Source of the DNA: Panorpa germanica
Taxonomy: Eukaryota; Arthropoda; Insecta; Mecoptera; Panorpidae
Reading direction: 5' to 3'
NCBI GenBank assembly: GCA_963678705.1
Contig: OY783210.1
Location: 15,191,331-15,255,330 of the forward strand
DNA length: 64,000 nt
The translations under genes were made by a program, and so were the position numbers. Of this stretch, positions 54,863 through 58,254 are shown one piece after another. Under the pieces are notes generated by a model. That model did not search any database. It had not been told where the DNA came from and saw only the letters and a program-made list of their open reading frames with translations. Every line of letters starts with the position of its first letter. The stretch's first letter is position 1.

Positions 54863-55958
54863 ATGATTGAAGTTAAATTAAGATCTTCGCAAGGCCAAGT
54901 GTTTACGGTGGACGAAGAGACCATAAGATGCATGGCGCCGATTGTTGAATCTTGGCGGACAAATAAAATAACAAACGAAAATGAAATTCCGCTTCCTATT
55001 GTAAAAACATCTACATTAAGAAAGGTCTGAATCATATAATTGAGCCCCTAATTTTATTTGTAAAACAATATATTGTTTTACAAATATAAGGTCATTTTTT
55101 GTGAGTGCTAAATGTTATTGACAATTCTGTGCGATTATTAGCGAGATTCTAATTAGAATCAAAAGCCATTGTCTTCTATGCAGAAAATAGTTTTTGAATG
55201 TAAGCGACTCAAACGTATTTGCCGCTCATTGTATTCCATGCAAATGATTCTAACTTTGATGATATTTACCGTGTCTGATATGATCTTTTTCTTGAGTCAA
55301 TATCAATTGTATCTACACAATTGCCTACGAGCCTATAGGGTTTGTCATAAATAAAGGTTATAAAATTTATGACAAACCCTTAGAAATGTTACCAGTCATA
55401 TAATAATTGGAATTTAATTTGAAAATATAGTAATATTCATTTTCAAAAGTAATTTTTGCGGTTCCAACTCATTAAAAGTCAGTGGAAGAAAGTTTAAAAT
55501 GCAGATACGTTATTCATCTAACTAATTGCAGCTTTAGATTTCGATTCGCGTTTATAGTTACTTACATAAAACGATTTAAACATTAAAAAACATGTTTTTT
55601 TTGATAATATTTAACCTGCTGTATAGTATCGCCATCTATATTTCGCGAAAAAAAATGGCCATGTATCGTTTCACCATAAGTTAAAGATAAATTAGCTGCA
55701 CTGGGTAGGCACCTATTTCATCCTGATTTATTACTAATTACTGAAACAAATATTCAGATTCTTCAATGGGCACAACACCACAAAGACGATCCAGAATCTT
55801 CTATTAAAGATGACATCAGTATACCAGAATGGGATCTCAAATTTTTGCAAGTGAATCTAACAGAATTATTCGTTTTGATATCAGCCGCTTCACTTTTGCG
55901 CATGGTGAAACTAATGACCTACTTATCAAAAGTTATTGAACTCATAACTATGATATGA
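54863..55958 (+). CDS. SKP1-like protein, shortened (gene or decaying copy)
   Basis: SKP1 links F-box proteins to cullin-1 in SCF ubiquitin ligases. Two exons: 54863-55024 and 55758-55958, phase 0. Exon 1 reads MIEVKLRSSQGQVFTVDEE...IPLPIVKTSTLRK, like the SKP1 start (IKLQSSDGEIFEVDVE...PLPNV); exon 2 reads ILQWAQHHKDDP, then WDLKFLQVNLTELFVLISAASLL, like IQWCTYHKDDP and WDADFLKVD..LFELILAANYL. The product is 120 residues against about 162, ending after the KLMTYLSKVIE helix, so the C-terminal F-box-contacting helices are missing. The frame has no stops across the two exons. The first intron donor is weak (gtctga). The start follows an acceptor-like ttttgcag, implying a 5' UTR intron. Several usually fixed residues differ, so it is a fast-evolving paralogue or a recent pseudogene. 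Confidence 0.7.
55337..55380. repeat. Perfect 16-bp hairpin, 12-base loop
   Basis: AGGGTTTGTCATAAAT (55337-55352) is exactly inverted at 55365-55380 (ATTTATGACAAACCCT) with a 12-base loop. It sits in the intron of the SKP1-like gene. It may be a tiny foldback element or a structured RNA; function unknown. Confidence 0.8.
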
Positions 55959-56160
55959 GAACCAAACATAATTATGCACAGCTTGATTTCAAATTTATTA
56001 TTTATTTTTAAATATGTATTTTAGTTTATGATATATCAATATATTAAATCTCCATATAGAAAGAAGACTATAATCTTGTTAAAAATGATGAAAAGGTTCA
56101 CTTTTATGATTTTAAGAGCAATGCAATTTTTTGAGTTTCTGCGTAGATATTTAAAATCTA

Positions 56161-57709
56161 ATGAAGCAGTTCTTTATTTTAAAGCCTAGCGAACATAACT
56201 GCATCAAAAAATTTCAAGAAATCCAAGAAAAATTTTTAGAAAAAAAAGTCCATGAATTTAAAAAAGGTCGTATAAAAGCCAGAATCGCGTGGATATTTAA
56301 AATGTAATGAAGCAGTTATTTACTTTAAAGCCTAGCGAACATAACTGCATCAAAATTTTTTAAGAAATCCAAGAAAAAAATTTAGAAAACAAAGTCCATG
56401 AATTTAAAAAAAGTCGCATAAAAGCCAGAAACGCGTGGATATTTAAAATATAATGAAGCAATTATTTACTTTAAAGCCTAGCGAACATAACTGCATCAAA
56501 AAATTACAAGAAATCCAAAAGAAATTTTTAGAAAAAAAAGTCCATGAATTTAAAAAAGGTCGCATAAAAGCCAGAATCGCGTGAATATTTAAAATGTAAT
56601 GAAGCAGTTATTTACTTTAAAGCCTAGCGAACATAACTGCATCAAAAAATTACAAGAAATTAAAAAAAAATTTTTAGAAAAAAAAGTCCATGAATTTAAA
56701 AAAGGTCGTATAAAAGCCAGAAATTCGTGGATATTTCAAATGTAATGAAGCAATTATTTACTTTAAAGCCTAGCGAACATAACTGCATCAAAAAATTACA
56801 AGAAATCCAAAATAAATTTTATAGAAAAAAAGTCCATGAATTTAAAAAAGATCGCATAAAGGCCAGAATCGCGTAAATATTTAATATGTAATGAAGCAGT
56901 TATTTACTTTAAAGCCTAGCGAACATAACTGCATCAAAAAATTTCAAGAAATCCAAGAAAAAAATTTAGAAAAAAAAGTCCATGAATTTAAAAAAAAGTC
57001 GCATAAAAGCCAGAAACGCGTGGATATTTAAAATGTAATGAAGCAGTTATTTACTTTAAAGCCTATCGAACATAACTGCATCAAAAAATTACAAGAAATC
57101 CAAAAGAAATTTTTAGAAAAAAAGTCCATGAATTTAAAAAAGGTCGCATAAAAGCCAGAATCGCGTGAATATTTAAAATGTAATGAAGCAGTTATTTACT
57201 TTAAAGCCTAGCGAATATAACTGCATCAAAAAATTACAAGAAATTAAAAAAAAATTTTTAGAAAAAAAAGTCCATGAATTTAAAAAAGGTCGCATAAAAG
57301 CCAGAAACGCGTGGATATTTAAAATGTAATGAAGCAGTTATTTACTTTAAAGCCTAGCGAACATAACTGCATCAAAAAATTACAAGAAATTCAAAATAAA
57401 CTTTATAGAATAAAAAGTCCATGAATTTAAAAAAGGTCGCATAAAGGCCAGAATCGCGTAAATATTTAATATGTAATGAAGCAGTTATTTACTTTAAATT
57501 CTATCGAAGATAACTGCATCAAAAAATTACAAGAAATCCAAAAAAAATTTTAGAAAAAAAGTCCATGAATTTTAAAAAGGTCGCATAAATGCAAGAATCG
57601 CGTGGATATTTAAAATGTAATGAAGCAGTTATTTACTTTAAATCCTATCGAACATAACTGCATCAAAAAATTACAAGAAATCCAAAAAAAAATTAAAAAA
57701 AAAAAAGTC
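56161..57709. repeat. 146-bp tandem satellite with four-unit higher-order pattern
   Basis: About 10.6 head-to-tail units. The word ATGAAGCAGTT or its variant starts units at 56161, 56307, 56453, 56599, 56745, 56891, 57038, 57183, 57329, 57476 and 57620 (spacing 144-147). Each unit has AAAGCCTAGCGAACATAACTG and AAGTCCATGAATTTAAAAA. Units 2 to 5 and units 6 to 9 match in order by their private variants (CCAAGAAAAAAATTTA, CCAAAAGAAATTT, ATTAAAAAAAAATT, CAAAATAAA with AAAGGCCAG), so the higher-order period is about 584 bp. Edge units are the most diverged. No coding in any frame. Confidence 0.97.
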
Positions 57710-58254
57710 CACCATTCACTTCAATTAATACTAATAATAATAGCGTAATTAATATAAATTTTTAGCTTATTTCAGCGCCTAATCGGCATGCAACTATATA
57801 TGCTCATATAGAAGTATATTTAGTTGCATATTGATTAGGGGTAGTAATTTATAACCAGTAGTGCCATCTATGAAACAAAGGAATAACTTTTTGGTATATC
57901 TACCATTTAATAGATGGCGCATTTTATGTTTTAATTATTCTGCTATAACTTTAAAATAATTAATTAATAATATCTCTCATCTAATTATGTGACAACATAT
58001 TTATGAACATAATTTACTAAGTTGTTCAAAGTAAATCATTCATTCTTTCTTTCATATTCGATATATTTCTTTAATTTTTAAATTACATTAAAAATATATT
58101 AGCCTTATCACATTGTTTCCTAAAAAATGAAGAGTAACAATTCTAAGTACAGTCTTTTTTAATATGTACGAAAGTAACATTTTATATACAGTTTTAAATA
58201 TAACAAAGGGTGAATCAATGTTTTTACCAGGTTTACAACCTGGTGCTGGGTTAC
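57710..58254. other. Intergenic between satellite and YJU2B
   Basis: About 545 bp, AT-rich, no gene. It carries two opposed copies of a GCCATCTAT-type motif (57862-57871 and 57910-57920) and should contain the 3' UTR and polyadenylation region of the minus-strand YJU2B gene. Confidence 0.7.

What the first reader, a model, noticed from the sequence alone, without database searches (positions are those of the whole stretch)
56161..57709. Higher-order satellite: four-unit pattern of about 584 bp built from 146-bp monomers
Seen directly: about 10.6 monomers, spacing 144-147 bp, and private variants that repeat in the order 2-3-4-5 then 6-7-8-9. Edge units are more diverged, as expected if unequal exchange homogenises the centre. 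Higher-order repeats are typical of centromeric arrays but here sit in a short gene-rich interval, between a SKP1-like copy and YJU2B. The monomer length is close to the 147 bp wrapped in a nucleosome core. It may be a seed or outpost of a larger genomic satellite.
Basis: partly seen in the sequence, partly recalled or inferred. Interest (0 to 1): 0.75.

Follow-up and report, generated by a model that had tools for sequence, protein, structure and literature searches.

The report
Broken half of a palindromic Helitron
The short 146-base repeat array is not a stray piece of centromere but one surviving arm of a jumping gene (a Helitron) whose complete copies carry two mirror-image arrays around a palindromic centre.

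Summary
The array is real (56141-57711, period 146, 10.8 copies). The "higher-order" pattern is one duplication of a four-unit block (units 2-5 and 6-9), seen twice and not shared by other copies tested. The satellite reading fails. Matches to the array in the window's own 464-Mb genome fall into 38 regions. 37 hold an inverted pair of arrays around a spacer: 28 seen in sequence, 9 by coordinates. Most spacers (cores) are palindromic. The window is the only single arm: 177 bp of core (55984-56160, up to 98.9% identical) plus 11 units. Complete copies are non-autonomous canonical Helitrons: 5' A|TCCTATATTATAATGTTCCAA; 3' a predicted 19-nt hairpin, 12 nt, CTAG|T. Four copies measured end to end are 2.2-5.3 kb, no frame over 81 aa. 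Empty sites of one copy join exactly at A|T without target duplication. So this is a foldback-like architecture carried by a rolling-circle transposon; the window copy is a truncated relic. Helitrons with central tandem arrays are known; eight literature searches showed no canonical Helitron with mirrored arrays around a palindromic core.

The parts
56141..57711 (+). Tandem array, 11 units (last one partial) of about 146 bp; one arm of the element, reading outward from the core
   Evidence: TRF; unit alignment; profile scan of the whole window: 11 units, all on +
55984..56160 (+). Half of the core that separates the two arms in complete copies (outer 177 bp); by eye, weak homology continues to about 55960
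   Evidence: 98.9% to L025, 98.3% to L023, 96.0% to L028; junction sequences
56300..56882 (+). First copy of the four-unit block (units 2-5)
   Evidence: same order once in L025 left arm
56884..57467 (+). Second copy of the four-unit block (units 6-9)
57712..57765 (.). Outer break: array homology stops within a unit; no terminus of this Helitron family recognised here
   Evidence: 3' pattern not found in the window at up to 5 edits; no 5' end next to the array
55344..55976 (+). Neighbour at the inner break: dispersed segment with a SKP1-like open stretch (about 55740-55960), 93% to C7:13147600-13148216; abuts the broken core; the 1.1-kb stretch fetched around the second copy shows no match to the L025 element beyond a 21-base one

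Best explanation
The array is one arm of a decayed copy of a non-autonomous canonical Helitron. The complete element reads 5'-TC end, short 5' leader, array in minus orientation, A+T-rich and mostly palindromic core (about 0.4-1 kb), array in plus orientation, hairpin, CTAG-3', inserted between A and T without target duplication. SHOWN: the anatomy, the termini, an exact A|T empty site for one copy, lack of long reading frames in four complete copies, variable unit number. INFERRED: whole elements are copied as units (near-identical arms at different loci); a RepHel protein from an autonomous Helitron mobilises them by rolling-circle replication; unit number changes by unequal exchange or slippage; arms of older copies become alike by foldback conversion; the window copy lost its other arm, half the core and both termini by deletion or recombination. 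The four-unit 'higher-order' pattern is one local block duplication in this arm.
For: Dispersed relatives aligning over all 1549 bp at up to 94%. 37 of the 38 regions in that result are inverted pairs: 28 seen in sequence, 9 by coordinates; the window is the exception. Cores are 61-97% identical to their own reverse complement (gapped columns left out), median 82%, against a median of 50% for shuffled cores; each of 20 exceeds its own shuffle, but L022 (107 bp, 61% against 58%) barely, and L010, L013, L015 and L022 need many gaps. A search with one palindromic 514-bp core scored 40 of 912 candidates, each matched on both strands. 3' end with predicted 7-bp stem, 5-nt loop, 12 nt, then CTAG|T in 9, CTAA|T in 1, TTAG|T in 1, at the outer side of exactly one arm in 11 of 25 loci; 163 sites genome-wide at up to 3 mismatches against 0 for the reversed pattern. 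5' end TCCTATATTATAATGTTCCAA preceded by A at six places in five loci (L011 twice, L018, L019, L028, L029); 3704 sites genome-wide at up to 1 mismatch, control 0. Ends in correct order, 2.2-4.0 kb apart, in six regions by coordinates (a core is listed or seen in five of them), plus L028 and L029 from sequence. L019, L029, L028 and L048 measured as 3990, 5315, 5036 and 2248 bp, longest frame 60-81 aa. L029: flanks joined without the element match 40 of 40 scored places across the junction; 4 of 4 fetched ones read ...GTACTA|TATATTG with no duplication. Subfamily L014, L017, L018, L019, L021, L027: arms match arms of other loci at up to 99.6%. The genome is rich in RepHel Helitrons: PF14214, 150 scored matches of 893 candidates, frames up to 1489 aa.
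Against: The window copy itself has no terminus, so its membership rests on homology to complete copies. 14 of the 25 loci L009-L033 show no 3' end at up to 5 edits. At up to 4 edits the 5' search gave 13 matches; I counted six as true 5' ends and set aside seven (L016, L021 truncated, L022, L026, L031, L032, window 62316), of which L022 and L032 are not preceded by A. In L010, L015 and L023, and partly in L011 and L024, mirror symmetry goes on beyond the arrays, which the simple anatomy does not explain. The 3' hairpin does not fold better than shuffles (z -1.24 and +0.56). L048's 5' end is preceded by T unless a TC four bases further out is the true start. No autonomous copy with the same ends was found. 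The joined flanks of L028 gave no clear empty site, only its own two halves and three weak matches. Only one insertion has been tested for an empty site with a positive result.
Confidence: 0.9

Rival explanations
1. Outpost or seed of a centromeric-type satellite with four-unit higher-order repeats.
For: 146-bp monomer; one four-unit block duplication; many related arrays in the genome.
Against: 37 of 38 regions are inverted pairs around a spacer; arrays seen are short; the four-unit order is not shared by the other arms typed, apart from one copy of the block in L025.
Confidence: 0.04
2. A foldback (FB/Tetris-like) terminal-inverted-repeat DNA transposon, with tandem repeats in its inverted arms and a cut-and-paste transposase.
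For: Long inverted arms built of tandem units around a spacer are the visible hallmark of foldback elements such as Tetris (PMC4079207: abstract and the section 'Tetris Is a Foldback TE' read); in some loci the symmetry extends past the arrays.
Against: Outer ends are asymmetric: TC at one side, hairpin and CTAG at the other; the one tested insertion has no target duplication and sits at A|T, whereas that paper reports 8-10 bp duplications for Tetris.
Confidence: 0.05
3. Mirror-image arrays made locally by inverted duplication of a single-arm repeat, with Helitron ends nearby only because Helitrons are very common in this genome.
For: Helitron 5' ends are frequent (3704 sites); in 22 of 50 arms the sister arm is the closest relative.
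Against: Related cores lie between the arms of the fetched loci, and the 40 scored matches to one core are palindromic; leader sequence between 5' end and arm is shared by independent copies (L019 and L021, 97% over 237 bp); the L029 empty sites lack the whole 5.3-kb unit; 0 of 12 arms of the young subfamily have the sister as closest relative.
Confidence: 0.03

Closest known systems
Non-autonomous Helentrons with central tandem repeats (Cg_HINE of the Pacific oyster; DINE-1/DINE-TR1 of Drosophila)
   Same: Rolling-circle elements without coding capacity that carry short arrays of mostly 140-180-bp satellite-like units (one oyster cluster averages 146 bp) dispersed in the genome (PMC7492417, passages read; PMC4067079, passages read; DINE-TR1 paper seen only as a cited reference).
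   Different: Those have subterminal inverted repeats and as a rule one central array (one oyster element carries two consecutive ones); here the ends are canonical TC/CTAG at A|T and there are two arrays in mirror image around a palindromic core. A review notes arrays 'oriented in different directions' inside oyster Helitron/Helentron elements (PMC12628747, passage read), the nearest precedent I found.
Tetris foldback transposon of Drosophila virilis (TIR-220 repeats)
   Same: Inverted arms with internal tandem repeats (about 220 bp); non-autonomous (PMC4079207, abstract and one section read).
   Different: Tetris has terminal inverted repeats and 8-10 bp target duplications and its authors suggest the Mutator superfamily; the present element has asymmetric Helitron ends and no duplication at the tested site.
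Canonical Helitrons (Helibat1/Helraiser type)
   Same: 5'-TC, CTAG-3', a 19-bp palindrome 11 nt from the 3' end in Helraiser (PMC4778049, passages read) against 19 nt and 12 nt here; A|T target.
   Different: No canonical Helitron with long inverted arms appeared in my searches; no RepHel copy with these ends was found.

Membership tests
Canonical Helitron (non-autonomous) | 5' terminus TC preceded by host A | tested here: met
   6 of 6 places counted as full 5' ends, in 5 of 25 loci (L011 twice, L018, L019, L028, L029); seven weaker matches set aside; L021 truncated; L048 ambiguous. Absent from the window copy
Canonical Helitron (non-autonomous) | 3' terminus CTRR followed by host T | tested here: met
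   11 of 25 loci carry the end; 9 CTAG|T, L026 CTAA|T, L029 TTAG|T. Absent from the window copy
Canonical Helitron (non-autonomous) | 16-20-nt hairpin about 11 nt upstream of the 3' end | tested here: met
   7-bp stem, 5-nt loop, 12 nt to the end; fold not better than shuffles, so pattern and position only
Canonical Helitron (non-autonomous) | Insertion between A and T without target site duplication | tested here: met
   One insertion (L029) against 4 of 4 fetched paralogous empty sites; L028 uninformative; others not tested
Canonical Helitron (non-autonomous) | Shares ends with an autonomous RepHel element | tested here: inconclusive
   RepHel copies abundant; two aligned ones (L046, L047) end in CTAG|T but with other sequence before it; partner not found in a partial look
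Foldback TIR transposon | Long inverted arms with tandem subrepeats | tested here: met
   37 of 38 regions
Foldback TIR transposon | Symmetrical termini and target site duplication | tested here: not met
   Asymmetric TC / CTAG ends, no duplication at the one tested insertion
Helentron / HINE | Subterminal inverted repeats, T-rich target, Helentron ends | tested here: inconclusive
   Ends and A|T target are of the canonical Helitron type; subterminal inverted repeats were not searched for
Higher-order satellite repeat | Multi-unit block iterated and shared among arrays | tested here: not met
   Block present twice here and once in L025, not seen in other arms typed
Centromeric satellite | CENP-A or centromere association, long arrays | not testable with these tools
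   No chromatin data; no long array found, search is a lower bound

The most novel reading that the evidence does not exclude
The mirror-image arrays and palindromic core are not passive cargo but part of how this Helitron lineage works: as single strand the element folds into a kilobase-long hairpin, which promotes second-strand synthesis or copying of one arm onto the other during rolling-circle transposition, and if transcribed makes long hairpin RNA. Foldback architecture would then arise outside terminal-inverted-repeat transposons too.
Probability: 0.2. Interest if true: 0.65.

Novelty: new variant of a known kind. Interest (0 to 1): 0.42.

Why it matters
In the papers I saw, foldback structure is tied to cut-and-paste transposons. 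Finding it, with tandem arrays in the arms, inside canonical Helitrons shows that rolling-circle elements can carry and spread kilobase palindromes, which should be hard for a single-strand intermediate. It also gives a clear source for dispersed satellite-like arrays and a warning that a short array with apparent higher-order structure can be a transposon arm.

Tried and rejected
Satellite outpost: rejected because 37 of 38 regions are inverted pairs. Assembly artefact (false palindromes): thought unlikely because cores, termini and flanks recur over many loci and an empty site exists; raw reads were not available. Nucleosome-length argument: not testable, left aside. First-unit type next to the core: 44 of 50 arms have a first unit closest to window unit 1 (my count), but unit 1 is also the closest type for many other units, so I do not use it. 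Autonomous partner: two aligned RepHel copies had other sequence at the 3' end (their 5' ends were not reached); comparing by eye the 16 RepHel hits on the first 15.5 Mb of C1 with the 100 listed 5' ends gave no pair in the right order within a few kb. Viral contigs: one exact pattern for the unit, 0 matches. Unit profile on 14 loci with RepHel genes (L034-L047): 0 hits. Empty site of L028: none clear. One search returned no alignments, probably because of wrong BLAST options, repeated; one search stopped half-way, the rest done. Outputs were cut by the tool; I used what was shown.

Full report
OBSERVATION. Tandem Repeats Finder gives one array, 56141-57711, period 146, 10.8 copies, 91% matches. 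Eleven anchors lie 144-147 bp apart. A profile made from ten units finds 11 units on the plus strand and none elsewhere in the window. Units 2-5 match units 6-9 at 96.6, 97.9, 97.3 and 93.2%; the lag-4 mean beats permuted orders (P = 0.005; 0.076 if the best of lags 1-7 may be chosen; p = 0.012 with another statistic). So there is a duplicated four-unit block, seen twice, not an iterated higher-order repeat. The nearest relative by unit similarity, the left arm of L025 about 0.8 Mb away on the same contig, has units 1-5 in the same order (96.6-98.6% for units 2-5), then different units; whether the window gained a block or L025 lost one is not settled. Other arms do not share the order. Only the outer edge is more diverged; unit 1 is not.

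RELATIVES. The array searched in the window's own genome (464 Mb, 249 contigs) gave 113 matches from 40 scored of 1256 candidates; they fall into 38 regions. In 29 of them both strands were matched in that search; 20 of these were fetched (L009-L028) and seen as pairs, 9 are judged by coordinates. Of the nine with one strand, the window is one; the other eight were fetched (L029-L033, L054-L056) and each shows the opposite arm. Thus 37 of 38 regions are inverted pairs and the window is the only single arm. The number of regions is a lower bound and more divergent arrays may be missing. L009-L028 had been chosen as visible pairs; the eight one-strand regions had not. Over the 25 loci L009-L033 there are 575 unit hits, partial ones counted, 4-17 per minus arm and 9-21 per plus arm; the fetched stretch of L030 cuts its left arm, and L011 and L024 also hold hits outside the main arrays.

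CORE. The spacer between arms is 107-1005 bp, 19-24% G+C, in the 20 loci measured. Each of these 20 is closer to its own reverse complement (61-97%, median 82%, gapped columns left out) than its shuffle (median 50%, maximum 58%), though L022 (107 bp) is barely above its control and L010, L013, L015 and L022 need many gaps. A search with the palindromic 514-bp core of L019 scored 40 of 912 candidates, and all 40 places match on both strands over nearly the whole length; being the best matches to a symmetrical query they are a favourable sample. The window's 55984-56160 matches the outer part of the core at up to 98.9%. Left of it lies a dispersed segment with a SKP1-like stretch; a second copy (590 of 633 aligned positions) stands without the element.

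ENDS. In 11 of 25 loci the outer side of exactly one arm runs into a hairpin sequence, a CTRR-like end (9 CTAG, 1 CTAA, 1 TTAG) and T. The predicted stem-loop is 7 bp and 5 nt, 12 nt before the end (the fold itself is not better than shuffles). The other side begins A|TCCTATATTATAATGTTCCAA at six places in five loci, with a truncated case in L021; six other matches at up to 4 edits were set aside as weak. Genome-wide the 3' pattern has 163 sites and the 5' pattern 3704, reversed controls 0. Ends in the right order, 2.2-4.0 kb apart, occur in six regions by coordinates, from the listed places only; four copies measured end to end are 3990, 5315, 5036 and 2248 bp, longest frame 60-81 aa. L048 is a compact complete copy. 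For L029 the joined flanks match 40 of 40 scored places across the junction, and four of four fetched sites read straight through ...GTACTA|TATATTG without duplication. The same test for L028 found no clear empty site. These features are those that PMC4067079 and PMC4778049 (passages read) give for canonical Helitrons.

MECHANISM. Copies L014, L017, L018, L019, L021 and L027 have unlike arms that match the corresponding arms of other loci at up to 99.6%, from which I infer that elements move as whole units. Over all 50 arms the sister arm is the best match in 22, against a mean of 0.96 and a maximum of 8 in 2000 label shuffles; in that young subfamily it is in 0 of 12. I infer that arms of older copies become alike after insertion, by conversion within the folded element; an origin from several symmetrical masters is not excluded. 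Mobilisation in trans by a RepHel protein is inferred: RepHel genes abound, but no copy with these ends was identified. In L010, L015 and L023, and partly in L011 and L024, the mirror symmetry goes on past the arrays, which I cannot explain. The window copy is then a relic that lost one arm, half its core and both termini; its four-unit duplication is a local event of a kind that could also account for the varying unit number of other arms.

KNOWN AND NEW. Helentrons with central satellite-like arrays are well known (PMC7492417, PMC4067079, passages read; review PMC12628747, passages read, which also mentions arrays in different directions in oyster elements). Foldback elements with tandem repeats in their arms are known from Tetris (PMC4079207, abstract, outline and one section read), a terminal-inverted-repeat element. 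Eight literature searches (listings with the starts of abstracts read) showed no canonical Helitron with mirror-image arrays around a palindromic core. Besides Tetris I read passages only of nine papers: PMC7492417, PMC4067079, PMC5139131, PMC3789558, PMC5148889, PMC4423592, PMC12628747, PMC10048060, PMC4778049. The library lacks most subscription journals. I therefore call it a new variant of a known kind.

Noticed in passing
window 57766-58033: Another dispersed repeat, 73-82% identical to 39 other scored places (of 336 candidates), begins about 55 bp right of the array; related sequence also lies outside L014 and L026.
   Followed up: partly
window 55400-55690: Very high-copy repeat, 91-95% identical to most of the 40 scored of 2067 candidates, left of the SKP1-like stretch.
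   Followed up: no
window 62316: TCCTATTATAATG..., resembles the Helitron 5' end of this family within four edits, preceded by A; possibly another Helitron copy.
   Followed up: no
L023 168-2030 and 5566-7501; L010 and L015 outer flanks: Mirror symmetry goes on beyond the arrays, in L023 for at least 1.6 kb at 97%, so these loci are larger palindromes than the Helitron anatomy explains.
   Followed up: partly
G000 C1:11.57-11.83 Mb: Helitron 5' ends 48-56 bp apart, often two or three in a row, in a dense cluster: multiple 5' ends, as in rolling-circle concatemers.
   Followed up: no
L020 6159 (minus strand), L028 1766: A second, different Helitron-like 3' end (GACGTCGCATTGCGACGGGGGTAAACTCTAG or close) beside or inside the 5' part of these copies: nested or chimeric Helitrons.
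   Followed up: no
   Followed up: no
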